Origin: Tritrichomonas foetus
Lineage: Eukaryota > Parabasalia > Tritrichomonadida > Tritrichomonadidae
Direction of reading: 5' to 3'
DNA length: 64,000 nucleotides
NCBI GenBank assembly: GCA_001839685.1
Contig: MLAK01000631.1
Span: 1 to 64,000 of the forward strand
Made by a program: the position numbers and the translations under genes. Of the stretch, positions 5,374 to 44,691 are shown piece after piece. How positions within the stretch are numbered: the first letter of the stretch is position 1; each line of letters starts with the position of its first letter. The notes below the pieces were generated by a model. It searched no databases, was not told the DNA's origin, and saw only the letters and a program-made list of their open reading frames with translations.

Positions 5374-5649
5374 TGGAAAGATTTAATAGTGCACGATATA
5401 TTTATGAATATATTTACGATAGAATGTTCATCCTGTAATTTTGTTAATATTTTGATGATGCGTTTTATTCATTCATTTTGTGTTAATTTGTTTAAAATGT
5501 AATAATCGAAAAGCTTTTCTTTTATGTGATTTTCTTTCTTTTGATGTAATTTTCTCTTTTCATGTGATTTGTATCGTTATATAAGTTAATATCTTTTATA
5601 GAGTTTTGACTCTAAGATATGAATGGTGATTTAATCATTAATCTTTTGA

Positions 5650-9141: not shown

Positions 9142-9767
9142 ATAAATAAAATAAATTTTCTGTGTTGCCAATTTTTTTAAACTTTTCTTTTATTTCTTCA
9201 TTACTTTCTTCATGAATTTTTCCTGCATTGTTGATTATTCTTTTATTAAGTATCAGAATATGAGTTGGAAGGAACATTTTTATCCCAGAGTTCTTAATTT
9301 CCATGAAATTTGCTGTCATTTTTCATTGATATTTGAAGGTATAATAAAGATTGGAATTATCATTCGTTAAATTGTTGATAGTTTGTGAAAATATTTCAAA
9401 GGATAAGTGCAATTAATCACTGCGATTCACTATTTTTGATACCTAAAAAGTGGAGAAATGATACCATTGTTCTTTTCCCAAACAATGACTCGACGATGTT
9501 GAAGCATGTTTCAAAGGAATGCTATCATGAAGAATGATTGGTATTGTTTTCCTAATTATTGTTCAAATCAAGAAAATTTATCAAATCATATTGAACAAGG
9601 CGAAAATGCATGAATGTTCATGATAGGTTATCATTTATGTTATACATATATCGGAATCGACATTGTTCAAATCGATGAACTTAATTTGATTGAAATAAAA
9701 AGGAAAAAAGATAAACAAAGTAAAAGGATATGAAGAAATTTACTCCTAAATCCAGGATACATTGATG

Positions 9768-9838
9768 CCTCTGCATTTCGATTAAGCTTGAAAAAGATTA
9801 CGACCAAGCTTGGTTATAGGTGAATTTGAATTTCCATC
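9768..9838 (+). ncRNA. candidate structured element C (family of three)
   Basis: It contains CTGCATT (9771), then, 18 nt on, TGAAAAAGATTAC (9789-9801), flanked by a perfect 7-bp stem AAGCTTG/CAAGCTT (9784-9790 with 9805-9811), then AGGTGAATTTGAATTTCC. The same blocks in the same order and with the same initial spacing occur near 62.5 kb. It sits in the spacer between the converging POLA2 and Smr genes. It could be a small RNA gene or a relic of a dispersed repeat. No known RNA family was recognised. The rest of the 760-nt spacer (9142-9900) shows nothing else. Confidence 0.3.
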
Positions 9839-9900
9839 TTATTTTGTTGTCGCTATATACAATGGTATATGCTACATTTTTATTTTAATTTCTTGGATTG

Positions 9901-10485
9901 TTATTTCTTCGATTCCGGAAGTGGCGGAATTGTAATGACCACCATGCCGGGGTTGTTTCTGTGGGAGACTGGCGGTGGAAGGCCTAGCATCCGTGCTACT
10001 TCCCTGACAACAAGAGGCATGGCTCTCTCCTGCTTAGCAACTTCTGTTTGATTTTCACTGAACTGGGAAGTGTGAATTCCCCTTCCAACATTAATTTTAT
10101 TGATAATTTTTGCGTCACGCTCGGGAGAGCAGAAAAACCACAAAAGCGACTCTCTCGCGCTCATTTTAGTATAACCGTGAAGATCAATCGTTCGACTTTT
10201 AATATAAGTATTGGAGACCTTATCGACTTTTTGTTTCGGTGGAATAAAATCGACTCTGTCATAATCATGGCTTGGATAAATAATCGGAATTCTGGTTTCT
10301 AATTCTTGTTCATCATTTTCCGGTTCCACATCTTTGATCATTTCTAAAAATTCGAATAAACCCTCCTCGCTTTGGTCAGGAAAATTTTCTTTGTACAATG
10401 AAGAAAGAAATTCGTCGTTTTCTTGATCGAAATTAATGAGGCTAGAAAGATTATCGTTCATTGTTATTTGTTCCATCATTTTCAT
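9901..10485 (-). CDS. Smr-domain protein, N4BP2-like
   Basis: A 194-residue protein starting at ATG 10485. Residues 99-190 form an Smr domain. D101-LHG (TIDLHGYTKMSARESL) is the first motif, G134-RGIHTS the GxGxHS motif, and NNPGMVVITIP (177-187) the closing N-P-G strand. Such domains act as RNA or DNA endonucleases or nucleic-acid binders; in eukaryotes N4BP2-type proteins cleave mRNA in no-go decay. Residues 25-52 (FLSSLYKENFPDQSEEGLFEFLEMI) could be a CUE-type ubiquitin-binding helix bundle, which would fit the N4BP2/Cue2 layout. That part is inference. The middle (53-95) is acidic linker. It converges with POLA2. Confidence 0.85.
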   Translation of the reverse strand: MKMMEQITMNDNLSSLINFDQENDEFLSSLYKENFPDQSEEGLFEFLEMIKDVEPENDEQELETRIPIIYPSHDYDRVDFIPPKQKVDKVSNTYIKSRTIDLHGYTKMSARESLLWFFCSPERDAKIINKINVGRGIHTSQFSENQTEVAKQERAMPLVVREVARMLGLPPPVSHRNNPGMVVITIPPLPESKK

Positions 10486-11919: not shown

Positions 11920-14900
11920 ATGATGAAATTGTTAGAAAGAAGCGTATCGTATTATACAAAAAGTCGTTCATATTACATCATTCAAATGCTAGGATCGATT
12001 TTTGTACCCACTCCCTCCGTCATAAACAATTGGGACTCTTTGGAGACTCTTCCTATTGTCGAGACTGCTCCACGTTCAGTTCCTCTTTCGGTCTTTGTTC
12101 GATATCCCTGCGAATCCTATAATGATCGCATCCTTTCAATGAAAACTGGTCTTCCAGCCACTGGAACTCTCGCCCTAGTTCAAAGAATATCGCAACATGT
12201 CTCTACAGTCGATCGCTTTCTTGCCGATTTGTATTCCAAACGAGGTGTTTCAATTCCTCTTCTTTCATACATCGAAAAACTCAAAAAAGAGAGGAATTTG
12301 AATAAAAATCCACCAGAATTTCAATCCGAAAACGCCCAGCAAATGGCTCGAACATTAATTACACCGACTATCGAATATCTCAAAAAAATCAAAGCGGAAA
12401 TTACAGCAATAGCTTTGGAATTCGGTTTGATTTTCCAAAACAGAGAAGTATGGTTTAATGGCAAATATTCAAATTCCTTATTAGATCAAGTTTGCATTTT
12501 GATTTACAGACTGGCCGCCCTTTCCCAGCTCATGCTTGTCAAATCTGGAGTCATCAATGATATTTCAAACTTGTGCAAATTTTTGCCAAATGATGATGAA
12601 ATAACTCGATCTTTAACCGAGTTAAGAATTTGGATGCTTTCAAAGAACTCTATTACTGACCAGCTTCTTTCAAATATAGCAAATTTCGAAGAAAATGACT
12701 TTAAAACTCTTTTCAAGTTTTTCACATCATATGTGAGGTCATGTATTGAAGCTGATGATTTCGTTTTCCCAGAAATGCAATATGCATATATCAATATGTA
12801 TGTTTTCTTACTTCAATGGTATATAAAACAACAACAACGTGAAGCTGAAAGCAATAAAAATAAAAAGAAACCAAAAACTATCTTGAAAGGTGTCGATGAT
12901 GATACAAAGAATTTCATGAAAGTCTTAAAGCAGAACTATCCTTGTGTTCTCTTATTTTTTGACTGTTCCTCAGATTTAGGCGATATTATACCACCTGGAA
13001 TGGCAGATGTCCCACCTAAGGCAAGCATTCAGAATCAACCGAAAATTACTCCCCATTCACTTGAAAATCATCTTCGACAATTGAGGTCTTTATATAACCA
13101 TTTATCAAACAATATTACTGCTGTGTTAATTCATGAACCTCATCCTGACGAATCCAGAAAAATTGTAATTTCTTTAATCAATTCTTTACATGAAGTTGCA
13201 TCAACATTGAATTCTGTTCGTTCAATTATTTCAAATTGTATCAATCATCCACCTGCTGCACCAGATACAGAAGAAGACAAAAAATTGAATCATTTTGAAC
13301 TAAGTATGAAATATGGATTCAAAGATGATTTAAACTTAATTTTGTTGGTTTTATGCATTTCTCGATCAATTAAAGAAATTATTGTTTCGAATCTTCCTTT
13401 AGTTCAACAATATATAAACTATTATGTTCAATATTATATTCAAAACTTTGCATATAACAAACTTCCTCCAGCAATTATCCGTGCTGCAAAATGTCCACCA
13501 CTTAAAAAAATTCTTGAATCAATTCGCTCATTGATTGGATCGTTTAATGATGCTGAATTTCCAATTAATGAACAAAAGAAAAAATACGGCAAAATTAATC
13601 CTATTGTTCCAAATTGTGCTCCTAATTTGTCCATTCTTGAAATTGCTAGAATTCAAATACAAAATGTGGTCAATCCAGAAAATCCATTCTTGACTAAAAA
13701 AGGCGTTTTATCAGGTGTTGATTTAGCATCTGAAGATAAGAAAGAATTCGATCAATTCTTGGAAGATACGAAGTTTTTCGCCGATTTATTAACACTTCAT
13801 GATACAATTGATGTTGTATTTGATCAATCTAATCTTTTCTTCAAAGAAACTAGTCTTGATATGCATAAAGTTTCATTCTTCCCTGTTCGTAGCTCACTCC
13901 CAGTGATTCTATCTGAATATGCATTAGAATATTATCACAAACCTGAATTAACAAATGCCTTATTCTTTCCACTTTCGATTTATGATGATGCTGCATCTAC
14001 ATCCATTCGATATCTTCATTCCAGGTATCTGTATGAAGAAATTAAAGCTGAAGCTGAAATTTGTTTGACTGCAATTGCAAAAAGAATTTCGGATTCTGCT
14101 TTTCATCCAATTTGGAAGTTTGCTGCAGTTCGTTCACTTTCTAAATCAATGGTAAACGACTTTCCGAAAGGCCATGAAGCTAATGATTATATTAATGAAA
14201 GTGTATCTGCAATTAGAATTGGTGTACTTCTTCAACAAAACCAACTTTTCTTATTGGGAAGTCCAATTGATACAAAAACCTTAATTGCTGAAAGAATTAA
14301 TTCTTTAATGTTTGATTCGATTAATAAAATCATTCAATTGTTCGATAGGCATGGTGTTCTTGTTTCAGTAGCTGTGAAAAAACTGTTGGAAATGTTAAAT
14401 AGTACACACACTCTTCTTCTTGACTTTGGATTACCAATTATGCCATTTAATGACACGTTATCACTTGTCATGTCCACTGATACACCAAACTCACTCCAAT
14501 CAAGAGTTTTATTGAGTGTTTCTGAACATTTGAATGAAGTAGTTTTATATGATTATTATTTACTAACTAATCCATTCCGATTAATTCCACGAAAGCAACC
14601 AAAAGTTGACTTTGAAGGAATTCATACAAATAAATTCGGTTCTGTAATGCAACTCATTTTAGAACCAACATCATGCTTAATTTCCATTGAAAATTTCAGA
14701 GAACTATTTTGGATGCTTGATGATGGTGCCATTGTCATTCTACATAATCAATTGTTATTGTCAATGGGTGAAATATTTGAAAATTTCATTCGAGTTTATT
14801 CATCAGTTCAATCACGATTGACTAGAATTAAAAATTCACCAATGATTTCAAATTGTGTTGAAGTTTTCGATCGTTTTGAAGGAGCTTATCGCTATTTTGT

Positions 14901-15597
14901 CGATGATGATGAAGTTCTTGAACTTTTCGGTATAATGGCTCAACTTGGTAACTTATTTGCTGCTTCAGAAATGATGGATGATGCCTATTCATTAAAGCGA
15001 TCAGCAACTGACATGATTTCATCATTTATTTTATGTAAATCACCAGAAGTTCCAGATTCAAACCAAAGTGAATTATTTAGCTTATTTGATACGAAATTCC
15101 AACAAATGAAACAAGCATTTTCTTCATATACAACAATTCCAGGAGAAAAAGAAATTATTCAACCTTTCTTATTCAATTCCCTTCGTCAATTTGCTCAACT
15201 TTTGCAAGCAAATGGAAATATATTGAATGAAACTTCTGAATATTTCCTTGATTTACAGACCTTGAAAGGATTTGCATCAATGTGGAGCGTTCTCGAATTC
15301 TTGATGTCTCTTCGTGAATCAATTCACGACAAAGGTAAACAAAGAGTATTCCAATCTTTCGGTGATGGAGTCCAATTATCTGCTGCTGCTTTACTCTGCT
15401 TCACGAATCAGATTCCATTGTATAATGTGTTGTCAATTGGATCAAGGATTAAGTCGCACATGCAAACAGACTTCAATGTTTTGAAGGAGCAGCGGGTAAA
15501 AACCTTTATTGCGGTAAATGACAAATTTGTTGCATCAATTCGATGCGCAATTTCATCCTATACACCTATATTTGATCATATTCTTAACAGAGACTAA
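11920..15597 (+). CDS. CYFIP: CYFIP/Sra1/PIR121 subunit of the WAVE complex
   Basis: A 1,225-residue protein, close to the 1,250 of human CYFIP1/2. The best-matching stretch is the middle. SFFPVRSSLPVILSEYALE aligns with the CYFIP FPIEMSMPWILTDHILE region, then FFPLSIYDDAASTSIRYLHSRYLYEEIKAEAE matches [29 protein letters not shown], then QNQLFLLGSPIDTKTLIAERI matches the LLGRSIDLNRLITQR block. The C-terminal part (SFGDGVQLSAAALLC) matches CFGDGLHWAGCMII. Role: the subunit that binds active Rac and holds the WAVE regulatory complex inhibited, controlling Arp2/3 actin nucleation at the cell edge. No signal peptide or membrane segment. A DOCK-type GEF lies 6 kb downstream; that may be coincidence. 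The stop is TAAAA. Confidence 0.9.
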   Translation: MMKLLERSVSYYTKSRSYYIIQMLGSIFVPTPSVINNWDSLETLPIVETAPRSVPLSVFVRYPCESYNDRILSMKTGLPATGTLALVQRISQHVSTVDRFLADLYSKRGVSIPLLSYIEKLKKERNLNKNPPEFQSENAQQMARTLITPTIEYLKKIKAEITAIALEFGLIFQNREVWFNGKYSNSLLDQVCILIYRLAALSQLMLVKSGVINDISNLCKFLPNDDEITRSLTELRIWMLSKNSITDQLLSNIANFEENDFKTLFKFFTSYVRSCIEADDFVFPEMQYAYINMYVFLLQWYIKQQQREAESNKNKKKPKTILKGVDDDTKNFMKVLKQNYPCVLLFFDCSSDLGDIIPPGMADVPPKASIQNQPKITPHSLENHLRQLRSLYNHLSNNITAVLIHEPHPDESRKIVISLINSLHEVASTLNSVRSIISNCINHPPAAPDTEEDKKLNHFELSMKYGFKDDLNLILLVLCISRSIKEIIVSNLPLVQQYINYYVQYYIQNFAYNKLPPAIIRAAKCPPLKKILESIRSLIGSFNDAEFPINEQKKKYGKINPIVPNCAPNLSILEIARIQIQNVVNPENPFLTKKGVLSGVDLASEDKKEFDQFLEDTKFFADLLTLHDTIDVVFDQSNLFFKETSLDMHKVSFFPVRSSLPVILSEYALEYYHKPELTNALFFPLSIYDDAASTSIRYLHSRYLYEEIKAEAEICLTAIAKRISDSAFHPIWKFAAVRSLSKSMVNDFPKGHEANDYINESVSAIRIGVLLQQNQLFLLGSPIDTKTLIAERINSLMFDSINKIIQLFDRHGVLVSVAVKKLLEMLNSTHTLLLDFGLPIMPFNDTLSLVMSTDTPNSLQSRVLLSVSEHLNEVVLYDYYLLTNPFRLIPRKQPKVDFEGIHTNKFGSVMQLILEPTSCLISIENFRELFWMLDDGAIVILHNQLLLSMGEIFENFIRVYSSVQSRLTRIKNSPMISNCVEVFDRFEGAYRYFVDDDEVLELFGIMAQLGNLFAASEMMDDAYSLKRSATDMISSFILCKSPEVPDSNQSELFSLFDTKFQQMKQAFSSYTTIPGEKEIIQPFLFNSLRQFAQLLQANGNILNETSEYFLDLQTLKGFASMWSVLEFLMSLRESIHDKGKQRVFQSFGDGVQLSAAALLCFTNQIPLYNVLSIGSRIKSHMQTDFNVLKEQRVKTFIAVNDKFVASIRCAISSYTPIFDHILNRD

Positions 15598-20956: not shown

Positions 20957-23900
20957 TTAATTAATTTCATACTCAATATGTTCTGTAAGTGGATCACGTT
21001 TACCTTCATAACTCTTTGAATTAATATCTGGAAGCCCAAATTCTGTAATGAAGGCCAAAGTATGCTCACGCATTTCTTTAAATATCAAATAATGATTCTG
21101 GCTCTGGTAATATTCAATGCCACGATGATAAACTTTAAGAAGTCTTTCAACACTGCTTCGAAGCCTAGCAGCAAGTTCTTGTGCCTTTTCTGGATTTCCT
21201 TTTGTTCGAAGAAGTTTCAAAAGATCGAAAACAGATTCTTCTCCTTCAAGTGCAAGTTTAAAGAGTGCAACAATTCGTCCCATATCCTGTTCCATGTTTT
21301 GTTTATAGTTTCCTTCAATTGCATTTAAGTTTCTGCATGGGAAACATTTTTCAAATTCCATGGAGCTTTGTTGCATCAATAATCTTAATTTTTCAGTTTC
21401 TAATTCTGTAAAACCTGCTAAGGAAATATCAACATGTTTCACATCGATAACTTCAGAGAACATTGTGAAACGTGGCAATTCTTCACGTGTTGTATATTGA
21501 ATCAATTTAATTGATTTTTCATCTGCAGAATTTACTTTTTCAATGTCACTTCGTTTTACAATTTCGCGGAAAAGTTTCCAACAATGCAAATGCTCAAGTC
21601 CATCTGGGGTAGGATCATATTTAAGTACAGGGATACATTTATCATTGGAGAAATCTTTTTCAATTTTTGGTGAATCACTCGCTAAACAATATACCTTATT
21701 GTTTCGAACAAAGAAAGAAAGTGGTGTCTCATGTGTTGAAGATGAGCCAACAGTAAGTTCATGGAAACTCATATTTAATCCCGCTGCAACTTTAGCCAAT
21801 TCACTGTAATTTCGTTCAGTTGCAAAAATTCTCATTTGTAAAGAACGAAGGCAGCGTGAATCATAAAACATTCGAGATTTATCGCCATAAGTTATTGCAT
21901 CTTCAATTGCTTGTTTAAGTAATTCAATTGTAAAATCGGAAGAAATGAACTGGAAATCAGATGAAATTGATTCGAAATCAATTTGAGTTTCAACCATTAC
22001 AGATGGAAAGAATGAAAAATCTCTTTCGCCAAGCATATATTTACCTGAACCTTTAGTTCTTGCATTTCGAATTGGTTGACAAACAATTAAATTAAAGTTG
22101 AAATCTTTATTATCGGTTGATAGAATTTGTGAATTGAGAGTTTCTTCATGCATGAAAACAGTGGAAATTAAAGCACAAATATGTAATTGAGCAACAAAAG
22201 CAGAAGGGAAGTTTCCACTTTGAACATTAATTCTCACAATTTCTTTAAGCCATTTCATTCTCATTGATGGAAATGTTTTATGCTGGTTTGCAATTTCCAT
22301 AACATAAACACACCTTTCATCAGGTGGATGAGTAGCAAGACGGAGCTTTTCAATAACTTCTGCTATATTATTTGCAGCAATCATTCTTTCATTCAACTTT
22401 GAAGTCAGAGCTTCATTTTGGAAGAATTGACTGAAGTTTTGAATCTGTGCAATCATTTGTTTAAACAAAGAAATTTGTTCAACGGGTGAATGAAGCAAAA
22501 GTGATGTCAATGCATCAATAACTTCGACAGAAGAGACAGTAACTGATCTTCTTGCATCAAAATCGGCTTTAAAGAACAAAAGAATCAATGATGTTGCAAA
22601 ACAACGTGCAATGTGTTGTTTTCTGGTAACAACTTCTAGGAGATTTTGAACAAGATTACGTTGACATGGATAAATGTTGATCAATCTGGAAACTATATCG
22701 AAAATCTTAGGGAAATTATAAGGAATTTGATACGGACTCACTAAATGTGAAATTAATTTAATTACTGAGGGCAAAGGATCAACAAAATAGTTTAAATTCA
22801 ACCATAAGAATTGTAAACATCGTTGTGTAAGCTGATCATAAAGTCCATTAACAATTGTGATCTGTGGAGTCAGATTTTCAATGACTGATTCTGTTGCAAG
22901 GGCAAGAAATTCAATGAAAAGGGTTTGGAAGTTCGGTGACATCGAAACAAAGAAGTTTTTCAGAAGCTGAGTTGGAGTATATCCAAGCAAAAATAGAATT
23001 GTTGGCAAGAAATCATAGTGTGAACTTTTTAGAAGCTCTGAGGCATAAAAAGAAGAAATAATATCTAAAATCGGAAAGAAAGCAAATCCAATTCGATAAG
23101 AAAGAGACGGCTCGATGATCTCTAATGGTAGAAAGAGATCATTTAAGAATCGAATACATGATTTTAAGGCTCGTTCATCAGATGTCATAGTTTTATTTAC
23201 AGCTAAACAAATTAATGAAACAATTGGATTAAATGGTGAAAACATGATATTATTTAATGGTCGAACAGGAAGCTTTTTTGCAATGTAAATTGCAAATTCA
23301 TTAGTGTATGTGAAAGGAATCAAAAAGTCAAAGACACAAAAGAATGCAAAATTATCATCTAATTGAATTAAAAGACGTATATGGGCTAATAAATTGTTGT
23401 CGATTGATGCAGGATCATCACAAATTGAACAGAATTTGAAAAGAGTAGTACCGTAAAGCCTATTCAGAATTTCAGCATTCTTTAAATCTTTATTTCGAAT
23501 AAGAAAACAGATTAATTGTGTAACACGTGCGAAAAAGTTGAAAATAGATGCAGGAATCCATGCTTCTGTTCTTCTATGATATGAAACAATCAAAATATCA
23601 GATAAAATATCAAATGCATTAATGAATTGCATTATTAATTCTGGCTTTGAATCTATCGCATTTTGAATCAATTGATCAAAGGAATTTGTAAACGAGGAAG
23701 TAAAATTATGCTTGATTGTTTTAGGATCAAAGTTTGAATAAATCCATCTTCGAACAACATCTTTGACATCTGTTTGTTTCAATCGATAAATAAAATCAAC
23801 AAAATATTCAGCAGTTAAAGGTGAGATAATACGTAATAATTTTGAAAGAATAGGTAAAGCCAAAATAATTAGATTATCTTGTGTTGTTTGTCCAATAATT

Positions 23901-25420
23901 TGTGTCCATTGAACTTGTTGTGGTACCAAAGCATATGCAAAATCGCTAAAATACTTGGGCGGATATATAAAGATTGGAATGTTAAAATTAAACATCATAT
24001 TTGTTTTAGAACTGGATTTAATTTTTGATAAATATTCATCTGATTTGATTCTTTTCAGTGGTGAGACAGGAATTACAACGTTTGGTGTTTGAATCATAAT
24101 TCCATCTTGGAAAAGCGGCATTATACAAATTTTTGAGATATTTGGAGTGTTATGAGAAAGCACCATAATATGGAATATTAAATGAGCAGTTGATGGTAAT
24201 GGTTTCTCAATTAAAATTCGAATCACATCTGGAAAATAGAGTTTCCTTCCAGCTGGAATTGGATATGAAATATAACAATCAAGTAATAAATCAATAGATT
24301 TTGAACTGATGCATTTCAAACCATCGGGCTTAAAAGGATCAGTTGTTTCATTACATACAAAAAGTTTGAAATACACAAACTCACCTTTTGGTGAATTATT
24401 ATAGACAAATTGAATGTTACTCAAATGCATTGAAATAACTGGATCTGTCACTTTTGGTGCTGATGTTAAACATAAAAGTGGTTTGTTACGTAAGGTATCA
24501 ACATTGAAACAAGTTTCTGGCATTTCATTATACGGAACAATTTCACAATTAATTTGACCATTAATTGATATTGAATTTTCTTCATCTGGAGGTAATCCAA
24601 TATTTTTGAGTGCATCTGGAGTATTCAATTTTGCCCATGGCATATTAAATGTTTTCTTCACTTCACCTTCCAGTGGGTTTAAATACGAAAACGCAAACGG
24701 AACAGGTGTAGAAATTGATAAAGCTTGAACTTGACAATTACTTGATAAAGATTCAATAAATGAATCAATTGAAGCTGCATTTTCATGCGAAAGAACGCAA
24801 ACCATAATCATCGACTTAGGCGTTGGTTTTTTCACTTGAAAATAAGTTTCTTGTTTTTGAGTCTGAATGAAAACAAATTTTCCGTTTGAAAATGCAAAAG
24901 TTGCAGAATCTGTCAAAACCGTTTTTGATTCAGAATCAAACATGTAGATCGCGCCGTGAACACCTGAAATATTTTCCGTTTTTCCTAAAAGCGTAAAGCA
25001 ATCAATTGTAACTTTGAAATAAATTTCAGATACTGCAGATATGGAATTCGGAATATTAAATGGCGTTTTTGGCTTTTGCGGTGATTTGACAAGGTTGGAA
25101 ATCGGCTGGAAATCAAGACCAAGTGAATCGAGGTCTTGTTCGTTCGTGCTTCGTTTGAGAAATTGTAAAATTGGACCATTTTCCAATTTCCCGTTTAAAC
25201 TCGTGCTGTCTTCTTCGGTAAGATTAAAGTCGTTATTGTATTCAACAACTTGTGGTGGAGGAAGAGGCTGGATTGTAACTGGGGTGTATTGATATGCCGG
25301 TGCTCTAACAACGTTGTCAAACCACTTTTCGTGAAGGTCGCAAAAATCGGAATGTATTCTCGAAGGAGGAGGAGGAGATTGGATCTGTGTTGCTGTAAAA
25401 AGAGGACGGAAACTTGACAT
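20957..25420 (-). CDS. DOCK-family Rho-type GEF
   Basis: A 1,487-residue protein. Residues about 350-480 fit a C2-like DHR-1 domain (NIQFVYNNSPKGEFVYFKLFVCNETTDPF, then LLLDCYISYPIPAGRKLYFPDVIRI), the lipid-binding part. A long helical region follows. The C-terminal third fits DHR-2, the exchange domain: RMKWLKEIVRINVQSGNFPSAFVAQLHICALIS is lobe A, matching the WLESLAKFHLQNGN-type motif. Then comes the EELPRFTMFSEVIDV stretch, and IEGNYKQNMEQDMGRIVALFKLALE and EKAQELAARLRSSVERLLKVYHRG near the end. The layout is most like DOCK-C/D (zizimin) proteins, without a recognisable PH or SH3 domain. Role: activates Rac/Cdc42-type GTPases at membranes. It is divergent from the YEATS gene. The stop is TAAAT. 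Confidence 0.85.
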   Translation of the reverse strand: MSSFRPLFTATQIQSPPPPSRIHSDFCDLHEKWFDNVVRAPAYQYTPVTIQPLPPPQVVEYNNDFNLTEEDSTSLNGKLENGPILQFLKRSTNEQDLDSLGLDFQPISNLVKSPQKPKTPFNIPNSISAVSEIYFKVTIDCFTLLGKTENISGVHGAIYMFDSESKTVLTDSATFAFSNGKFVFIQTQKQETYFQVKKPTPKSMIMVCVLSHENAASIDSFIESLSSNCQVQALSISTPVPFAFSYLNPLEGEVKKTFNMPWAKLNTPDALKNIGLPPDEENSISINGQINCEIVPYNEMPETCFNVDTLRNKPLLCLTSAPKVTDPVISMHLSNIQFVYNNSPKGEFVYFKLFVCNETTDPFKPDGLKCISSKSIDLLLDCYISYPIPAGRKLYFPDVIRILIEKPLPSTAHLIFHIMVLSHNTPNISKICIMPLFQDGIMIQTPNVVIPVSPLKRIKSDEYLSKIKSSSKTNMMFNFNIPIFIYPPKYFSDFAYALVPQQVQWTQIIGQTTQDNLIILALPILSKLLRIISPLTAEYFVDFIYRLKQTDVKDVVRRWIYSNFDPKTIKHNFTSSFTNSFDQLIQNAIDSKPELIMQFINAFDILSDILIVSYHRRTEAWIPASIFNFFARVTQLICFLIRNKDLKNAEILNRLYGTTLFKFCSICDDPASIDNNLLAHIRLLIQLDDNFAFFCVFDFLIPFTYTNEFAIYIAKKLPVRPLNNIMFSPFNPIVSLICLAVNKTMTSDERALKSCIRFLNDLFLPLEIIEPSLSYRIGFAFFPILDIISSFYASELLKSSHYDFLPTILFLLGYTPTQLLKNFFVSMSPNFQTLFIEFLALATESVIENLTPQITIVNGLYDQLTQRCLQFLWLNLNYFVDPLPSVIKLISHLVSPYQIPYNFPKIFDIVSRLINIYPCQRNLVQNLLEVVTRKQHIARCFATSLILLFFKADFDARRSVTVSSVEVIDALTSLLLHSPVEQISLFKQMIAQIQNFSQFFQNEALTSKLNERMIAANNIAEVIEKLRLATHPPDERCVYVMEIANQHKTFPSMRMKWLKEIVRINVQSGNFPSAFVAQLHICALISTVFMHEETLNSQILSTDNKDFNFNLIVCQPIRNARTKGSGKYMLGERDFSFFPSVMVETQIDFESISSDFQFISSDFTIELLKQAIEDAITYGDKSRMFYDSRCLRSLQMRIFATERNYSELAKVAAGLNMSFHELTVGSSSTHETPLSFFVRNNKVYCLASDSPKIEKDFSNDKCIPVLKYDPTPDGLEHLHCWKLFREIVKRSDIEKVNSADEKSIKLIQYTTREELPRFTMFSEVIDVKHVDISLAGFTELETEKLRLLMQQSSMEFEKCFPCRNLNAIEGNYKQNMEQDMGRIVALFKLALEGEESVFDLLKLLRTKGNPEKAQELAARLRSSVERLLKVYHRGIEYYQSQNHYLIFKEMREHTLAFITEFGLPDINSKSYEGKRDPLTEHIEYEIN

Positions 25421-27368: not shown

Positions 27369-28847
27369 TTATTTACTTATTTTTGGGATTTTTGGTTTGG
27401 GATGATATTTTATCCCTTTTGACTTCAGTGGCTTCTTTTTTTTTCTGATTTCTAGCCTCTTTTTCAGTTCTTCTTCAAAATACTGTTTGTTGATGAATCC
27501 AAATTGGGTTGTTCGAGTAAGGTTGGTTGAATTTTTTGAATTTTCTGATTTAGTCAATATTTCTTGAATAGTACACGATTTGGTAAATTCATTTTCATCA
27601 ATTATTGCAGTATATGGTTCATTGCTAGTATTAGGCTTTATTCCAGCCTTTGAAAAAGCCTTTCTATTGGTATTTCCGGTGGTAGCCTGTTCGAAAGCTT
27701 GTATTAACTTGTTTATTTGGTCAGCTTGTGAATTTTTTATAAATTCAGTTCTGATTGTTTTTTTTCGTCTCTTCACAATCCCAAAAGTAACTAAATCCAA
27801 CATTTGAAACAAACCTGTTGAGTTACTTGGGAAAGTAATTAGTTTAATCAAATTTTCACCAAGTAATTTTTTGATAGAATCTGTTGTATGTGATGAACAA
27901 TTATCTGAAAACATAACAGCAGGACTATCAAGATTTCCAATGCTTGTTCTTGACTCTTGAACATGTTTTAATACACTTAATTTCANTTCTATAATAAGAT
28001 CTTCATTAACAAAGCCAGTTGATGAGCTTCGAAGCATTACATCCTCATCTTTTCTTAATCCAGATGATATCACATCTGATTGAATTCTAGTTCGATGATC
28101 GATGATCATGGGCATAACAGTGTCACCACCTGCATTGATGCACGCAACTAATGTTTGATTTTTTTGGTTCCGTTTGATTGAATAATGGATTGATTGTCCT
28201 TTCATATCAGCAGGGACAAGCACATCTTTTGATTTTGATTCGTGTCGTTCTGAAGAACCCATTTCGTCAAAATTATATATTAGGTCCATATAAATTCCAG
28301 CAACTTCTGCTTTCAGTATATTAATATATTCATGAATATTATCCGGACTTATTGATAAACGTGCACCATCTTGTGGTATTGCAGTTGCTGGAATCACTTC
28401 ACTTTGATACCTTTTTAAGAAATTTGTCATCCAACCATATGACAAAGCAACTTGAAAGTTTTCAAGAATAAAATCAAGCACTTCACATTGAGACAATGGC
28501 GTTGATGCAATTGCATTAGATTTGATAAATTCGAGGACTTGTTTTTCTTGAATGTCAGTTAGTGATTTTGGTCTTCCATCATTTTTGTGGCTTTTTCTTG
28601 CTTGCTCGAGACTTCGTGTCAAAATTCTCCTGGATATCCCGAAGAGTAACTGCACATTTTTTTTGGTTGTAATTATATCGTCAAATTCTGAAAAGATNTC
28701 ATAAACTTTGGCAATTTGTGAATATCGATATTGACAGCTTGAAAGCTCTGAACTTCGTTTTAATGAAATATAAAGGCGCTGTCCAAATAATGTTTGTGCA
28801 CGGTTAATCAATTCTTCAAACAGAATCGGAGTGGCTGCTTTCTTCAT
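27369..28847 (-). CDS. pogo/Tigger-like DDE transposase
   Basis: 492 residues from the first ATG (28847); a longer frame starts only with GTG inside the inverted repeat. The N-terminal 130 residues hold helix-turn-helix DNA-binding segments (NVQLLFGISRRILTRSLEQA, then GRPKSLTDIQEKQVLEFI). The catalytic core has Asp in YNFDEMGSSE, Asp in MFSDNCSSHTT, and a third Asp in STGLFQMLDLVTFGIVKRRKK. The last two are separated by 35 residues (DD35D). The C-terminus is Lys-rich (KKKKPLKSKG), probably a nuclear-localisation signal. Two N bases (27986 and 28698) leave two residues undetermined; otherwise the frame is open. It cuts and pastes the element at TA sites. The stop is TAAAT. Confidence 0.92.
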   Translation of the reverse strand: MKKAATPILFEELINRAQTLFGQRLYISLKRSSELSSCQYRYSQIAKVYXIFSEFDDIITTKKNVQLLFGISRRILTRSLEQARKSHKNDGRPKSLTDIQEKQVLEFIKSNAIASTPLSQCEVLDFILENFQVALSYGWMTNFLKRYQSEVIPATAIPQDGARLSISPDNIHEYINILKAEVAGIYMDLIYNFDEMGSSERHESKSKDVLVPADMKGQSIHYSIKRNQKNQTLVACINAGGDTVMPMIIDHRTRIQSDVISSGLRKDEDVMLRSSSTGFVNEDLIIEXKLSVLKHVQESRTSIGNLDSPAVMFSDNCSSHTTDSIKKLLGENLIKLITFPSNSTGLFQMLDLVTFGIVKRRKKTIRTEFIKNSQADQINKLIQAFEQATTGNTNRKAFSKAGIKPNTSNEPYTAIIDENEFTKSCTIQEILTKSENSKNSTNLTRTTQFGFINKQYFEEELKKRLEIRKKKKPLKSKGIKYHPKPKIPKISK

Positions 28848-28899
28848 TGAGAAAATCTGGAAATAAAAATGAAAAAATCTAAACGTACGAAAAAAGCCA

Positions 28900-28941
28900 G
28901 GACACACTTTTATTAGTGGGACATACTTTTATTAATGACTG
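28900..28941 (-). repeat. right terminal inverted repeat
   Basis: Perfect 42-bp partner of 26882-26923. The inner copy of the 19-mer is cut 3 nt short here compared with the left end. Confidence 0.95.
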
Positions 28942-34857: not shown

Positions 34858-37800
34858 TTATGATGTAGTTTCTTCGAAATCATTGTTGAAAGGATCTTCA
34901 ATGATTCCATCGTCTGATCTATTATTTGGATCGTATATTGGATTATCAGTTGAGCCAAATTCTTCATTACGGCTAAACGATCCGGTGAAAACTGTTTCTT
35001 GTGAAACTTCATTACTAATTGCATCCATGGCTTCGGATTTGAAATCATCTGGTTTTCTCTTCTTCAAAATGACAAATAGTGCAACTACAATTACTGCAGC
35101 AATAATGATAAGAACGGCAATGACAATTCCTGCGATTAGTCCAGCTTTCTTTCCTTTGCTTCCATCTGAGTCACTATCACTATCAGATGAGGTGGAAGAA
35201 TCAGATGGTTGTATGCCTGAATCATCAGTAGCATTAGGATCAGATGTATATCCATCTGGAAGGAATGTTCTTGATGCTGTGAATGGATTGGATGCTGTAA
35301 ATGCAGCTGTTGTTCCATCTAAGCATAATCCTTCAATAAAGTTGAATCCTGGTTTACATTCTACACAAACATTACCATTTGCATGACAATTCTTACAATT
35401 CTTAACTTCACAAGGGATACAAACTTCGATCAAAGTTTCTGGATCACTAATAACATAGAATCCATCTTCACAGTGTGTACACTGGCATGCTTCATCGTAT
35501 GTTACGCAGTGATCAAGATTACATTTGATACATTGTGTTCCATCTGAATTGGTTCCATATCCTAGACCAAGTGAATCACATGTTTCCAAACATTTGTTTT
35601 GATAATAATATCCTTTTGTACAAGATGTACATGTTGTTGGAGAATTAGTACAATTTCCACATGTATCATCACAAACTTTACATGTTGATCCTTGGAGATA
35701 GTAATGTCCGATACAAGCAGTGCATGTTGTAACTGATTCAGAGCATTCGCTACATGGAGAAGTGCATTTTTCACATGTTCCATCTGGTTTGGTGAGATAA
35801 CCACTTGCACAAGATAAGCAATCTTTGTCTGATGGGCCATCACAGGTTCCGCATGATGAATGACATTTCAAGCAATCTGACTTATCTTCATTTAGATAGA
35901 ATCCATCTAAGCACTTGTTGCATTGATTATTGTCTGTACATTCACCACATCCATCAATACATTTACGGCATGTCTCAATGCTAGTAAGATAAAATCCTGT
36001 GAAGCATGATGAGCACCAATACTCACTAAGTTTGGTGCATGTCTTGCATGACTCATGGCATTTTTGGCAAACACTAGAGGTTGATTCCTTAACATAGCCA
36101 TCAATGCAAGTAAGGCAATGCGATTGTTCTGGTCCTGAACATGTCTTACAATCATGATGACATGGGAAGCAAGTATGTGATGAATAATCTAGGTAATAAC
36201 CATCTGGGCATGATGTGCATTGACTTTCTGATTCAGCACATGTAGTACAGTTAGAATTACATTTGGTACATCCATTCTTTCCATTATAAAGATAGCCATC
36301 AGCGCATGACGTACAGCTTGTTGCTGTACCAGAACAGGTGGCACATGGATATTGACAATCTTCACACTTACCATCTTTAAGATAGTAGTAGTCTTCACAT
36401 TCGCTGCAAACACCATCTTTGTTACATTGTAAGCATCCTTCTTCACATGGAATGCATTTCATATATGTTCCATCAGTGTAAGCAACACCAAATCCAACTG
36501 CACATGACGTACATTGAGTAGTCGAACCACTGCAAGTTCCACATGAAATATCACATTGCTCACAATCACCACTTCCAGTGAGTAAGTAGTTATCTTTGCA
36601 CTTATCGCAAGACAAGTAACTTTCGCATTTGCTACAACCATCACCACATGCACTACAATAGTAAACATAATCATAGATATCGAAACTGTATTCAGAATCC
36701 CAGTAGTAACCATCAGCACACTCATCACCAGTGCAATCATATATTGATGAATCTGTGCAAGTCTTACATGCTTTGTTACACTTCTCACAAACTTTAGAAT
36801 TTGATAAATAATAACCATCATTACAGTCAATGCATGCATTGGCTCCTGGTCCTGAACATTCTTCACATTGAGAATGGCACTTACCGCATTTCTTTGTTTC
36901 TTGGTCGAAGTAGTATCCACTTTCGCAGTCATGGCATACTTCATCACTTTCACATGATTTACATCCCTTTGGACATTTCTGACATACTTTATGTGGATCT
37001 TTATAATATCCAACCTTGCAGGAATCGCATGAAGTGGTACCATCATGGCATGTTGCACAAGCACTATTACATCTCACGCATGATCCTTTGGCATCTTTAT
37101 AATATCCAGATGAACATGATACGCACTCGCCAGAGTCAGTACATGTATCACATCCAGATGGACAAGCTTGACAGACACCATTGCTGTCCATACGGTATCC
37201 TTTATTGCAGGTGATGCATGAAGTTGCAGTTCCTTGACATGTGGCACATGAATGATCACATTTTTGACATTGAGTTCCATTTAAGTAATAACCATCTGTG
37301 CAGGAGAAGCAGTTGGATGCAGAAGAACATTTGCCGCATCCCTCTCTACATTTTTCGCATTCAACCCAATTTCCATATTGTGTCTTAACATAATATCCTT
37401 CAGCACATGATGTACAATCGCCATACGAATCACATGTTACACAGTAATCATATTTACATTTGGTGCATTGTCCTTCTTTTTGGTAAAATCCACTTCGACA
37501 GGTTGTACATTGATTATCGCCTGGTCCAGTGCATTCTAAGCAGTTATTTGTGCATGGCTCACAGAACTTCTTGGAGTTCAAAAATTCACCTTCACGGCAT
37601 GAGCTACAAGTATTTCGTGATCCAACGCATGTCAAACAGTTAGGATCGCATGATCGGCATTGCTTACCATATAAATAATATCCAACAGCGCATTCATCGC
37701 AATTAGAATCGCCTTGTCCATGGCATGTATTACATGATTTATCACATTTGGAGCATTTTTTGTTGTCTTCATAATATGAATCTAAGCATTCTTCACATGT

Positions 37801-40800
37801 GGTTCCGTCACTGCATTTCTTGCATCCATCAATGCATGGGTAGCAGTATAAGGAGCTTCCTGTCTTCTTTTCATAGTATTTCTCTGCGCAGGTAAGACAT
37901 TGCGATGAATCTGGTCCATTACATGTGGCACAATTTTCAGAACACTTCTTGCATTTGCCATTTTCTTCATAAAATCCATCTTGGCATTTTAAGCATTTAT
38001 CACCACTTTCACAAATATGGCAATTATCTGGGCATGGTTCACAATATTGACTACCGAGTGATTGGACACGCATATAGTATCCATCGTAGCAACTCGTGCA
38101 TTTAGAATTAGATCCTGCTGTGCAGGTCTTACATGTTGGATTGCACTTAAGGCATGATGTTCCAGAAGCGTAGTATCCATCAGAGCATCCTACACATGTG
38201 GTTTCTGATGTACATTCAAGGCATGATTCATCACATTTAACGCATGTGTTCTTACTATTAACATATTGGTGGCTTGGACATGATTTGCATGTTTTAGTGG
38301 TTCCTGAGCAAGTCTTACAGTTTGGATCACATGCAATTGTGCAAACACCACCTTGAAGTAGCCATCCATCATTGCATTCAAGGCATTCATTGTTATTACA
38401 GCTCTTACAGTTATCAGAGCATTTGGTACATGATGAACCGTCTAATCTATATCCGTCCATGCATGTTATGCATGTGTTTGCATCTGTGCATTCTTTACAA
38501 CCTGTTGAACAAGATGAGCATTTGTCACCTTGTAAGAAATATCCATCATTACATGAGGAGCATGAATCATATGATGAACAAGTCTTACATTTGTAATCGC
38601 ATTTATTACATCCATTGTTAGAATTAACATAGTATCCGTCGGCACACACTTGACAGTAATTTGATCCTGTGCATTTAGCGCAGTGTGATGCGCAAGGAAG
38701 GCAATGACCATTATCAAGATAATATCCATCTTTACATTGTTGGCATGCAAGATTACCTGAATCAGAACATTTCAAGCAATTAGCATCAGGGCAAGCATAG
38801 CAATATGAGGCATGAGTAGAAACTACATAAAGATAGTACCCATCAATGCATGATGAGCAGTCTGAACTGTATTTACCAGTGCAAGTCTTACAGGTCTCAT
38901 GGCATTTAACGCATTCACCATAATAGTTTTCTGTATATCCTTCAGAACACTTTGTGCATTCATAATATGCTGGTCCTGTGCATTCTTCGCATGCCTCATT
39001 ACAAGGAAGACACTCACCTGAACTCTTATAATAATGTGGATGGCATGATGTACAAACAGATTTCTCTGAGCAAGTCTTGCATGATGGATCACAAGCTTCA
39101 CATTTGCCATTTGACATGTAAAATCCTTCAAGGCACTCTGTGCATGATGTAGAATCTGGGCATTTAGCACAATTTTCAATCGCACATTTCTTACAACTTC
39201 CGTTCTCCATATAATATCCATCAACACAAGTATTACAGTTAGTAGCTGAATCAGTGCATGTTGCACAAGGAGATGTGCATGATAAGCAATTTCCATTGCT
39301 TAAATATCGTCCATCAATACAACTGTCGCAAATATTTCCATTATTTCCATGGCATGTGGTACATGGTGATTTACATGCTGAGCATTTTCCATTTTCAATG
39401 TAATATCCAGACTGGCATTCTAGACATTCATCTTTCGTACACTTTGAGCATTTATCCGAACATTTTTGGCATGATCCATCATCACTCAGATAATATCCTT
39501 CGAGACATTCTGTACATACCAATGCATCTGAGCATGCTTTGCATCCTGGTGTTGTGCATGGAGCACAAATTTCAACCAAAGTTACTGGATCACTGATAAC
39601 ATAAAAACCATCTGCACATTGTTGGCATTGGCATGCTTCATCATATACCAAGCAGTGATCTATATCACACTTAAGGCACATTGTTCCAGCTGGATTAGTT
39701 CCAAATCCTTCACCTAATTCGTCACATGTTGAATAACATTTTCCTTCATAAGCATATCCGTTAACACATTCTGTGCAATATGAAGTTGAGCCTTCGCATT
39801 TAGCGCAATCTCCACTACATTTTGTACATTTTCCATTATCTAAGAAGAATCCCGCTAAACATTCTGTGCATTTATCAAGTGATCCTTCACATTTTGAACA
39901 TGGCTCATGGCACTTTTCACAATGTCCATCTTCAGAAATCAGAAATCCATCTCTACAAGATGTGCATGAATAAATTCCAGAATCATCGCATGTCTTACAT
40001 GAGCTATCGCATTTATTACATTCGCCATATCCCTTATAATAGCCTTCTGCGCAAGTAGCACAATATACTTCTTCAGAATATTCATCATAAGCACAGGTTG
40101 CACATCCAGTTGGGCATGAAAGGCACTTGGTTTCATAATAACCACCATCATAGTATCCATCAGCACATTTAAGACAATTATCTTTATTATCTTTACATGT
40201 GGCACATCCTTCAGCACATTGATTGCATGTTCCTGATGATACTAAATAAAAGTAATTTTCTTTGCATGATGTACAGTCAAATTCGGAAGGACCATTACAT
40301 GACTCACAACTTGAATGACAAGAGATGCATTTTCCTTCTGATGTGAGATATTTACCGGAATCACATTCGGTACAATGATCCTTTGAGTCGCTGCATGATT
40401 TGCATGATGCATCACAAACTTCACATGAATTAGAACTTGTCAAGAAATGACCTTCGCCACAAGATGTACATGTAGTGGGAGATCCAGAACACTGAGCACA
40501 TGAATTATCGCATGCATAGCAGTACTTATCAGTACCTGAGACATAGTAATGATCAAAGCATTCATTGCATGACCCATCAGAATTACAATCTTTGCAATTT
40601 CCTGGACAGTCTTCACAAACATGATATTTTCCTACTTTCGAGACAGAATGATATCCTTCGGCGCAAGTTAAACACTGTGTTGTCTTTCCTTCGCATATTC
40701 CACAGCTGACATCGCACTTTTGACAATCATTGTCTTCAGTTAATAAATATCCATCCAAGCATTTATCGCATGAATAGGAATTAGTGCACTTTGAACAACC

Positions 40801-43800
40801 AGAAACGCATGCTCGGCATGTTGATCCATATGATTGATAATAACCATCTGCGCATTCATTGCATGATGTAAATGAAGTACATGATTTACATGATTCATCG
40901 CATGGTTGACAACTTTTAGAGTTCGAGTTATAATAATATCCATCTACACATGAAATACAATCATTTTCTGTCGGTCCATCACAGGCAGTACAAACATTAT
41001 GGCATTTCCTGCATTTTCCGTCTTGAGTAAGATAAAAACCGGGATAACACTTATCACAATGAGTAGAATTAGAACAAGTCATACAAGTTGAATCACATTT
41101 CTGGCATTTCTTATTCCGATCAAAGTAATAACCAAGATTGCATGCATCACATGAATTAGTTGAATCATGACATAATGCACAAGAATCATGACATTTAGAA
41201 CATTGATTTCCATCAAGGTAGTAACCACTGATACATGATGTGCACTTGGTTCCATCTGTACAAGTCAAACAGCCTTCTGGACAGCCAACGCATGAACTGC
41301 CTTCCAAATGATACCCTGCATTGCATGCTGTACATTCTGTTTTTGAAGTGCATTTGCTGCATTTTTCATCACATTCAGCACATTTTCCATTATTCAAATA
41401 AAATCCATCCTTGCACTGCGAACAATAAGAAGATGTGCATTTTTGACAATTTTGATCGTCGCATGCTTGACAAGAAATTTCACCTGGTGTTGAATTAGGT
41501 GGAGCATAATATCCATCAGCACATTCTATACATGAATAACCATCTTGACAAGTTACACATGAAGCTCTGCATTTTAAGCATTTATCCGAATACTTAGATT
41601 TATAATATCCATCAGCACAGGATGTACATTGATCTTCATTTGGTCCAGTGCATGAGGCACAATTAGCATGGCATGGCTCACAAAAATATCTATCATTAAC
41701 ATAGTAACCATCATGGCATGTTTCACAATGATTTCTTGAACCTGAGCAAGTCTTGCAGTTGGGATCGCAAGGCTTGCATTTATCTCCGTACATGTAGTAT
41801 CCAACCTTGCATTCAGTACAGTTGACTGCACTTCCTTCGCATTTGCCACATGATTTATCACATTCTTCACATTTTTTGTTCTTGAGAAAATACGAATCAA
41901 TACATTCTGAACATGTTCCATCAGAATTACATTCCTTGCATCCTGTCATACATTGCTCACAATAGTTACTATTCTCTTTCTTGTAATAACCATCTGCGCA
42001 TGTTTCACAATCAGTTGGTCCATAACCATTGCATGTTGAACATGATTTGTCGCATTGATAGCACTTATGATCTGTTTGATTTTCTAAATAACCAATATCA
42101 CACTCAACGCAATCTGTAGATGATCTACATTTCTTACAGTGTGGACCGCATTCAAGACATTGGTACCCATTTAAACCAGATTTAATGTAAAATCCATCAA
42201 AGCATGAGGTACAATCATCATTATTACCTGCTGAGCAGGTCTTACATGATGAATGGCATTTCTTACAACTACCACTAGCATAATAATATCCATCAGCACA
42301 TTCTGTGCAATAAGAATATGATGTACATGAGGTGCATCCTTCAGAGCATTTTATGCATTTACCATCGGATAAATACATTCCTTGTTGGCAAACTTTGCAT
42401 GTATTGGCATCAGAACATGTTTGACAACCATCTGGACATGTAGTTTGGCATTTTCCATTGCTTAAGAGAAATCCATCATTGCATACCAAGCATTCATTTG
42501 ATGGGGAGCAAGTCTTACAATTTTCTGGGCATTGATTGCATTTTCCGTTTGAAAGTACAAACCCTATTTTGCATTGATCACATGTGTCCTGAGATTTTGA
42601 GCAAACCTCACAATTTGAGTCTGTGCATTCTATGCATATTTCCATAGAAAGATAATATCCATCTTGACATTTAGTACATGTTGAATAGTCAGTACATGAT
42701 AAGCATCCTCTACCGCATTCTCTGCAAGTTGAATAGTATTCATTCCAAAAATATCCGTCAGCACAGCTTTCATCATCACAAACTCCAGCTCTAGAGCAAG
42801 TCTTACAGAATGCTGGGCATGGAAGACAGTCTTTTATTGTTGGATCCTGATAATAACCATCCATGCATTTCTTGCATCTATGATCATCGCCTTCACTGCA
42901 ATCAGCGCAGTGTTCTACTGGACACAAACGACAATGTCGGCTATATTCATAATTATATTCATAATAGTAGCCCTCATAGCATTCTGAACAACCAGATGGT
43001 GAATCATCAATGCAATGTTTGCATGATGATGCGCACTTTGAGCAAGTTGATGATGATGATGATGAACCATATCCAGGGCGGCATCCATCTTTGCAATATC
43101 GATGACCATAATCTGTGCAATTTACACATCCTTCATGACACTCTTCACATTTATCTTGATATGAATTAAGGTAATAATGTGCTTTGCATGATGTGCACTT
43201 GGTAGCACTATCTTTACATTCAAGGCAGTTGGCATCGCAGGCCTCGCATACATTTCCATTCATAAAGAAACCTGATCCGCATTCCTTGCAAACTTTGTCA
43301 TTTTCACATACACTACATCCTTCTTGGCATTTTGCGCATGTTGATCCTGTGTAGTAATATCCTTCAACACATGATGTGCAAGTAGAAGTTGTGCGCTCAC
43401 AAGTAGCGCATGGACTTTGACATTTCATACAATAATCATAAATAGTATTCATTAGATATCCATCCATACATTCACTACATTGATTTGATGTACACTTTTT
43501 ACAGCCTTCTTGAGGGCATTTTGTGCATTGGCCATTCGAAAAATAATATCCATCACTACATTCGGTACATTGTGTGGCAGTGCATTTCTTACAATTTTCT
43601 TCACATTTTACACATTGTGTGCTATATCCAGTACGTAAATAATATCCATCAACACACATGGTGCAGGAATCCATGGTAGGACCATCACATTTGGCACAAT
43701 TTAGGCCACATGCCATGCATTTACCATCGTTTGTTGCATAAAAGCCTTCACCACAGCTTGTACAAAATGTAGCTGATCCTTTGCATTCAACACATGGTGA

Positions 43801-44691
43801 TTCACAATCAACACAATTGCCACTTTCATCTTCGTATTGGTTGAAATCACATTTTGGTTGTTCAATAATTGTTATAATAACTGATCCTTCGACATTTCCT
43901 TTATTTTCTGGACGCTTTTCATTATTTCCGGCCATTGATTCTACATTTGAGAAGAGTGATGTGTCAGCATAAGAATTACCACTGTAACCAACGGCTCCAT
44001 GTTGTAGATAATCTAAATCATTGGTGCATAATCCACCCATTTGTCCACCTCCTGGGCCAGAATACCCGTCAGCTTTGGTTTGATCGTCTGGACAATTGGC
44101 TCCATTCATGCTGTCTGCTGCACCAACTGTTGCATCAACAGCTTCAAGCTCTAATAAATATTTTGATTTGGTATATCGATAACGCTTTCCAATTTCACCT
44201 CCAGGGGCGCCAGAGGAAGATGAAGAAGCTCCTGAGCCTCCACCTGCAACTAAAACAGGATTTTTTCCAAATAAAATATCGGTGCATCCTCCACCTGCAC
44301 CTGGATAAAAAGTCTCTTTATTATTCATTCCATTTCCACTGTTGCCACCGCCGTTAAAACCACCTTTTGGTGTTTTATACGGGAATGTACTAGAGGTTGT
44401 ATATCCACCAATTTCTCCTTGGCCTCCAACACGAATAGTTATTTAGCTTTGTTTATTATTTGTATAATAAGCTTTTAAATAAGCACCTAAACCTCCTTTG
44501 TGGTCATAGGTTGCGCCTGCATAATCCATATCGCCTCCATTAGCTCCCCAGAGCTCAAAAGTATATTTACCCTTGGGAAGCGAATATGTGCATTCCTTCC
44601 CGATCTTGTTGAAAAGAAACTTTTTCCCTTCTTCGAGAACTTGAGGTTGACAGACTTCTGATAAACATAAAGTAGTAAAGAATAAGAACAT
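34858..44691 (-). CDS. giant cysteine-rich type I membrane protein, one in-frame stop
   Basis: One reading frame of about 3,277 codons, open except for a TAA at 44443-44445, 82 codons after the ATG at 44691. The first part has a short signal peptide (MFLFFTTLCLSEVC) and the start of a glycine-rich domain (YTFELWGANGGD). The frame resumes right after the stop with ITIRVGGQGEIGGYTT and continues the same Gly-rich domain (PGAGGGCTDILFGKNPVLVAGGGSG). Without readthrough, translation could restart at ATG 44328 (3,156 residues) but would lose the signal peptide. About 2,900 residues of furin-like/CxxC growth-factor-receptor-type repeats follow (C-x2-C ... C-x2-C-x-x-G-Y-Y), several dozen units. Near the C-terminus are a Ser/Asp linker, one transmembrane helix (AGLIAGIVIAVLIIIAAV), a basic stop-transfer KKRK and an 80-residue acidic tail with NPIYDP, an NPxY-type sorting motif. 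A surface receptor or adhesin is likely. The stop is TAAAT. Confidence 0.88.
44443..44445 (-). other. in-frame TAA inside the giant surface-protein gene
   Basis: The TAA lies between AYYTNNKQS and ITIRVGGQGE, both in the same frame and both parts of the Gly-rich domain. It is a single-codon interruption with no frameshift. It could be a real nonsense allele, programmed readthrough or a sequencing error. Confidence 0.85.

What the first reader, a model, noticed from the sequence alone, without database searches (positions are those of the whole stretch)
44443..44445. Single in-frame stop splits a 3.3-kilocodon surface-protein gene
Reading 44691 to 34858 on the minus strand, the signal peptide and first half of a Gly-rich domain are separated from the rest of the same domain by one TAA and no frameshift. 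With readthrough the protein is secreted and anchored; without it, initiation at 44328 would give a protein with a lost signal peptide. Possible explanations are a nonsense allele in one strain, programmed readthrough, on/off expression switching of a surface antigen, or a base error.
Basis: seen in the sequence. Interest (0 to 1): 0.75.

Follow-up and report, generated by a model that had tools for sequence, protein, structure and literature searches.

The report
Giant surface-protein gene with early stop
A very long surface-protein gene in what looks like a trichomonad parasite carries one early stop codon that cuts it off after 82 amino acids; this is most likely an ordinary, recently broken gene copy (or a single wrong base in the assembly), not a new way of reading genes.

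Summary
On the minus strand an 82-codon frame (44691-44446), with a hydrophobic N-terminus and the start of a glycine-rich domain (PF12810), meets TAA at 44443-44445. The same frame then runs 3194 codons to 34858 through the rest of that domain, 251 CxxC motifs, one transmembrane helix and a tail with NPxY and DPF motifs. Exactly one alignment column separates the pieces, and all six other glycine-rich genes found in the genome have a residue there, so the TAA stands in place of one sense codon; no intron or frameshift is involved. Nothing favours readthrough: the stop is in none of the six paralogs, the downstream RNA fold is ordinary, and stops are rare inside other families. No second stop lies in 3194 codons, so the stop is young (under about 0.4% neutral substitution) or an assembly error. 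In print, 98 T. vaginalis BspA-like entries are annotated as pseudogenes (PMC2843621). Most likely a recent nonsense allele. Two more of the seven glycine-rich genes are also disrupted in this assembly: C647 lost its 5' end to an antisense kinase fragment, and C870 changes frame before its transmembrane tail.

The parts
44446..44691 (-). Upstream piece, 82 codons: short hydrophobic N-terminus (signal-peptide-like) and first part of the glycine-rich domain
   Evidence: PF12810 positions 2-44, E 1.2e-8; best 9-residue hydropathy 2.3; the five paralogs with their own start have 2.7-3.4
44443..44445 (-). In-frame TAA
   Evidence: one TAA inside the domain match; one alignment column, a residue in 6 of 6 paralogs
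43864..44589 (-). Extent of the PF12810 glycine-rich domain match across the TAA
   Evidence: 90.9 bits, cut-off 24.5, 1 TAA inside
34858..44442 (-). Downstream piece, 3194 codons without another stop before its end: rest of glycine-rich domain, cysteine-rich VSP-like repeats, transmembrane helix, cytoplasmic tail
   Evidence: (PF03302, 643.5 bits, 32 stretches)
44326..44328 (-). First ATG after the stop; would start a 3156-aa product without a clearly hydrophobic N-terminus
   Evidence: best 9-residue hydropathy 1.3 in the first 40 residues; not shared with the closest paralog, whose first Met is residue 156 of its frame
34861..35124 (-). Transmembrane helix (35068-35124) and cytoplasmic tail with NPIY and DPF motifs
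   Evidence: 19-residue hydropathy 3.67; residues 3107-3125 of the downstream piece

Best explanation
This is a member of a trichomonad-type surface-protein family (signal-peptide-like start, glycine-rich domain, cysteine-rich repeats, one transmembrane helix, endocytic-type tail) that has recently acquired a nonsense codon. Translation from 44691 ends after 82 residues, so only a short fragment could be made and the giant anchored protein is not. The 3194 codons behind the stop are still open because too little time has passed for further damage. Shown: domain continuity, the single stop, sense codons in the six paralogs found, absence of a second stop. Inferred: that the base is real, that termination is efficient, and that the gene is now silent.
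For: TAA stands at one aligned residue inside PF12810; 6 of 6 other glycine-rich genes found in the genome have no stop in the domain (the tool calls such counts lower bounds). TAA is an ordinary stop here: in-frame stops in 1 of 135 kinase matches, 1 of 94 matches to the C-terminal 280 residues and 0 of 47 VSP-repeat matches, and 12 of 18 gene-like window frames end in TAA, this one included. The downstream frame was long under constraint: pN 0.28 against pS 0.71 versus the C647 paralog over 3138 codons (synonymous sites near saturation). No second stop in 3194 codons bounds neutral divergence since inactivation at about 0.43% (95%, uniform-substitution model). Two other members of the seven are also disrupted in this assembly (C647; C870), so broken copies are common in the family. 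Precedents: 98 T. vaginalis BspA-like entries annotated as pseudogenes for stops or frameshifts (PMC2843621, passages); a Sanger-verified SNP making a premature stop in an LRR-domain protein of one Histomonas meleagridis strain (PMC8529796, passages).
Against: No reads, second isolate, transcript or ortholog from another species could be consulted, so the base itself is unconfirmed. The lack of further damage fits an error or a very young allele equally well. The disruptions in C647 and C870 could also be assembly faults and so fit the error reading as well.
Confidence: 0.62

Rival explanations
1. Base error in the assembly: the genome has a sense codon there and the gene is plain and intact.
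For: A single substitution-type defect in an otherwise open 3277-codon frame; no second copy in the assembly to check against (1 match, itself); two relatives show defects that may be assembly faults (C647; C870).
Against: Stops inside other matched genes are rare (1 of 135 kinase matches), which limits the error rate, though the best-scoring kinases are a favourable sample. No run longer than three bases lies within 20 nt.
Confidence: 0.27
2. The downstream ATG at 44328, or another internal start, is used to make an unsecreted or differently targeted product of up to 3156 residues.
For: The frame stays open for 3156 codons from that ATG.
Against: No clearly hydrophobic N-terminus; the start lies inside the glycine-rich domain; the ATG is not shared with the closest paralog; a chain with 525 cysteines suits an extracellular protein (inference).
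Confidence: 0.05
3. Programmed readthrough of TAA gives a little full-length anchored protein beside a short secreted fragment.
For: One frame is kept on both sides of the stop.
Against: The stop is found in 0 of 6 paralogs. The downstream 110 nt fold no better than shuffles (z -0.65; 51 of 200 shuffles as good). The context is TAA followed by A, not one of the leaky contexts known from other eukaryotes (recalled). The UAAA it forms is a poly(A) tetramer of T. vaginalis according to PMC6413133 (passages), which would favour ending.
Confidence: 0.03
4. On/off switching or a silent archive: giant copies with disabled 5' ends stay silent until recombination supplies an intact start.
For: The closest paralog, C647, has also lost its own 5' end; Noel et al. 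mention pseudogenes as a possible recombination reservoir (PMC2843621, passages).
Against: Only two giant copies were found, 60% identical in protein and 64% in aligned DNA, which is distant for gene conversion (inference); no repeat tract at the stop; C647 may be a misjoin.
Confidence: 0.03

Closest known systems
T. vaginalis BspA-like proteins with glycine-rich domain (TvBspA-GRD) and the NPXY-tailed TvBspA group (Noel et al. 2010, PMC2843621; passages read; author name recalled)
   Same: N-terminal glycine-rich domain (TvBspA-GRD); transmembrane helix with an NPX[YF] tail (the NPXY group); disrupted members are common (98 entries annotated as pseudogenes)
   Different: Here cysteine-rich VSP-like repeats, not BspA leucine-rich repeats, lie between the glycine-rich domain and the membrane, and the gene is 3277 codons long; whether the two glycine-rich domains are the same family was not tested
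Giardia VSP / high-cysteine membrane proteins (PF03302)
   Same: CxxC-rich repeats matching PF03302 (643.5 bits) and a C-terminal transmembrane helix
   Different: Glycine-rich N-terminal domain and a longer tail with NPIY and DPF; PF03302 is also listed for ciliate, Entamoeba and animal proteins that match, so the match shows a kind of repeat and not kinship
Strain-specific nonsense SNP in an LRR-domain protein of attenuated Histomonas meleagridis (PMC8529796; passages read)
   Same: One substitution makes a premature stop in a parabasalid protein gene
   Different: There two strains were compared and the variant was verified by Sanger sequencing; here there is one assembly only

Membership tests
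ALK/LTK glycine-rich-domain surface proteins of this genome | PF12810 domain above the curated cut-off | tested here: met
   90.9 bits (cut-off 24.5), across the TAA; upstream piece alone 35.7 bits
ALK/LTK glycine-rich-domain surface proteins of this genome | Hydrophobic N-terminus and domain in one uninterrupted frame | tested here: not met
   interrupted by TAA; met in 5 of 7 members found (C877, C544, C421, C870, C199), not in C647, whose 5' end is replaced. C870 meets this feature but changes frame later, before its transmembrane tail
VSP-like cysteine-rich membrane proteins (PF03302) | Many CxxC repeats and one C-terminal transmembrane helix | tested here: met
   32 stretches; 251 CxxC, transmembrane hydropathy 3.67; the repeats lie behind the stop
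Giardia VSP proper | C-terminal CRGKA-type tail (recalled) | tested here: not met
   tail printed carries NPIY and DPF motifs and has no such end
Trichomonad BspA-like proteins | TpLRR leucine-rich repeats | tested here: not met
   no LRR family matched at E 0.01 in either piece
Programmed stop-codon readthrough | Stop conserved among homologs with coding on both sides | tested here: not met
   0 of 6 paralogs; no ortholog from another species was available
Programmed stop-codon readthrough | Stimulating downstream structure | tested here: not met
   z -0.65 for 110 nt (nested structures only; pseudoknots were not tested)
Programmed stop-codon readthrough | Peptides or footprints downstream | not testable with these tools
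   no expression data held
Pseudogene / nonsense allele | Stop stands where relatives have a residue | tested here: met
   residue in 6 of 6 paralogs, no gap
Pseudogene / nonsense allele | Base confirmed in reads or isolates | not testable with these tools
   one assembly only; no reads

The most novel reading that the evidence does not exclude
The genome keeps its giant glycine-rich/cysteine-rich surface genes as 5'-disabled copies (a stop in one, a swapped 5' end in the other), a silent archive that is switched on by recombination at the signal-peptide end.
Probability: 0.03. Interest if true: 0.7.

Novelty: new member of a known kind. Interest (0 to 1): 0.14.

Why it matters
Mostly as annotation: the locus should be recorded as one gene with a premature stop, not as a 3156-residue protein lacking a signal peptide, and not as a case of readthrough. 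If the stop proves polymorphic between isolates it becomes a simple marker of surface-antigen loss in a trichomonad.

Tried and rejected
Intron: the trichomonad 3' splice motif (consensus recalled) gave 2 hits in 64 kb at up to 2 mismatches against 2.96 expected, neither near the stop, and the alignment leaves room for one codon only. Reassigned code: rejected, since stops are rare inside kinase matches (1 of 135) and matches to the C-terminal segment (1 of 94). Initiator-type promoter motif TCAYW: present 13 and 8 nt before the ATG at 44691, but found within 25 nt in only 4 of 18 window genes against 18.4% background per stretch, so it is no evidence for a promoter here and does not help the trichomonad reading. 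Relatives in the 5.8-billion-protein collection: none of 2514 candidates for the first 300 residues of the downstream piece (only proteins of 0.55-1.75 times 3194 residues are considered); for residues 2600-3194, 194 proteins, of which the 120 listed are 24-35% identical and mostly annotated with PF03302 or PF15913. No ortholog was therefore available. Organism: no tool names it. A trichomonad is inferred from gene content, from the best solved-structure match (4uup) of a malate dehydrogenase of this genome (that this entry comes from Trichomonas work is recalled), and from tails like those in PMC2843621. The FragX_IP protein search gave three unnamed relatives and no organism. Papers on readthrough in Trichomonas: one search listed 7 papers; by their titles none is about readthrough of a Trichomonas cellular gene, and none was opened.

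Full report
What is there. One search shows the minus-strand sequence with TAA at 44443-44445. The 82 codons before it (44691-44446) begin with a hydrophobic stretch and end inside a glycine-rich domain; the same frame continues for 3194 codons to a stop at 34858. Pfam places PF12810 on the last part of the upstream piece (positions 2-44, E 1.2e-8) and PF03302, cysteine-rich VSP-type repeats, on the downstream piece (643.5 bits, 32 stretches). The downstream piece holds 525 cysteines, 251 CxxC motifs, a strong transmembrane helix and a tail with NPIY and DPF. The N-terminal hydropathy of the upstream piece (2.3 over nine residues) is lower than in the five paralogs that have their own start (2.7-3.4), and no signal-peptide predictor was run.

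Is it one gene? Yes. The genome-wide search with PF12810 reports seven matches (a lower bound by the tool's own note); six have no stop inside and the window's has one TAA inside a full-length match. With the two window pieces added as separate fragments to an alignment of the six paralogs, the last upstream and first downstream residues lie two columns apart, and each of the six paralogs has a residue in the column between. That leaves no room for an intron or frameshift at this point, and the stop is not conserved.

Is TAA a stop here? In-frame stops occur in 1 of 135 kinase matches (one TAG; 134 of 1798 candidates scored, best first), in 1 of 94 matches to the C-terminal 280 residues (one TGA) and in 0 of 47 matches to PF03302, so TAA is not used as a sense codon. 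At the kinase rate about 0.1 stop is expected in a gene of 3277 codons (taking about 255 codons per match). Such events somewhere in a 63.7-Mb genome are to be expected. The kinase sample favours intact genes, so this is a low estimate.

How old? The closest paralog, on contig C647, has an open frame of 3572 codons; over 3138 aligned codons the two are 60% identical in protein, with pN 0.28 and pS 0.71, so both frames were long kept by selection. Of all possible single substitutions in the 3194 codons, 7.3% would make a stop; the absence of any limits neutral divergence since loss of function to about 0.43% (95%) under a uniform-substitution model. The stop is thus very young, or not in the genome at all.

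Readthrough and switching. Neither is supported. The stop is unique to this copy among the seven, the 110 nt downstream fold as shuffled sequence does (z -0.65; 51 of 200 shuffles as good), the stop is followed by A, and no run longer than three bases lies within 20 nt. The resulting UAAA is the tetramer reported as a poly(A) signal in T. vaginalis (PMC6413133, passages); in this AT-rich DNA it can arise by chance. Translation from 44328 would lack a clearly hydrophobic N-terminus, and that ATG is not shared with C647.

Other disrupted members. In C647 the glycine-rich domain begins at about position 5425. Immediately before it lies the catalytic-loop region of a protein kinase on the opposite strand: kinase genes elsewhere align up to query position 628-629, that is C647 about 5426. 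C647 thus has no start or signal peptide in this frame, and its first Met is residue 156. Either a rearrangement or an assembly misjoin joined two genes. In C870 the 527-codon frame with the glycine-rich domain (8357-9940) ends without a transmembrane helix, while an overlapping frame (9898-10287) carries the C-terminal segment with DNPLY and DPF motifs: a frame change, an unrecognised intron or an assembly indel. Thus 3 of the 7 glycine-rich genes found are not contiguous in this assembly. The five smaller genes (C877, C544, C421, C870, C199) have a hydrophobic N-terminus and the domain in one frame.

What is known. Noel et al. (PMC2843621; passages) describe T. vaginalis BspA-like proteins with an N-terminal glycine-rich domain, others with NPXY-type endocytosis tails, and 98 entries annotated as pseudogenes because of stops or frameshifts; they note that some may be functional or serve as a reservoir for recombination. 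PMC8529796 (passages) reports a Sanger-verified SNP that makes a premature stop in one Histomonas strain. The present case is of that kind.

Verdict. A real observation with an ordinary explanation: most likely a recent nonsense allele (0.62), next a base error (0.27). The sequence alone cannot decide between them.

Noticed in passing
L021 about 1025 (G000:C647 about 5425): The 5' end of the closest paralog of the window gene abuts an antisense protein-kinase fragment: a rearrangement that broke both genes, or an assembly misjoin 5.4 kb from the end of a 281,750-base contig.
   Followed up: partly
L026 (G000:C870:8357-10287): Another glycine-rich gene is split over two overlapping frames (8357-9940 and 9898-10287) just before its transmembrane helix and NPxY/DPF tail: frameshift, unrecognised intron or assembly indel.
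   Followed up: partly
G000:C405:40061-40819 and G000:C203:142926-143291: Other single in-frame stops in this genome: a TAG inside a kinase match and a TGA inside a weak match to the surface-protein C-terminal segment.
   Followed up: no
window 34861-35124: Matches to the C-terminal 280 residues occur at 94 places of the genome (this gene included), several in frames of 2000-7400 codons, which suggests a family of putative receptors with a shared tail. Many matches are weak and may reflect the hydrophobic helix; six cover only the cysteine-rich part.
   Followed up: partly
window 27369-28928: DDE_1 transposase-like frame whose first listed start is GTG; whether it is complete was not examined.
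   Followed up: no
window 11920-15597 and 20957-25420: Long single-frame genes matching FragX_IP (CYFIP-like) and DHR-2 (DOCK-like), parts of Rac/WAVE signalling (the pathway is recalled).
   Followed up: no
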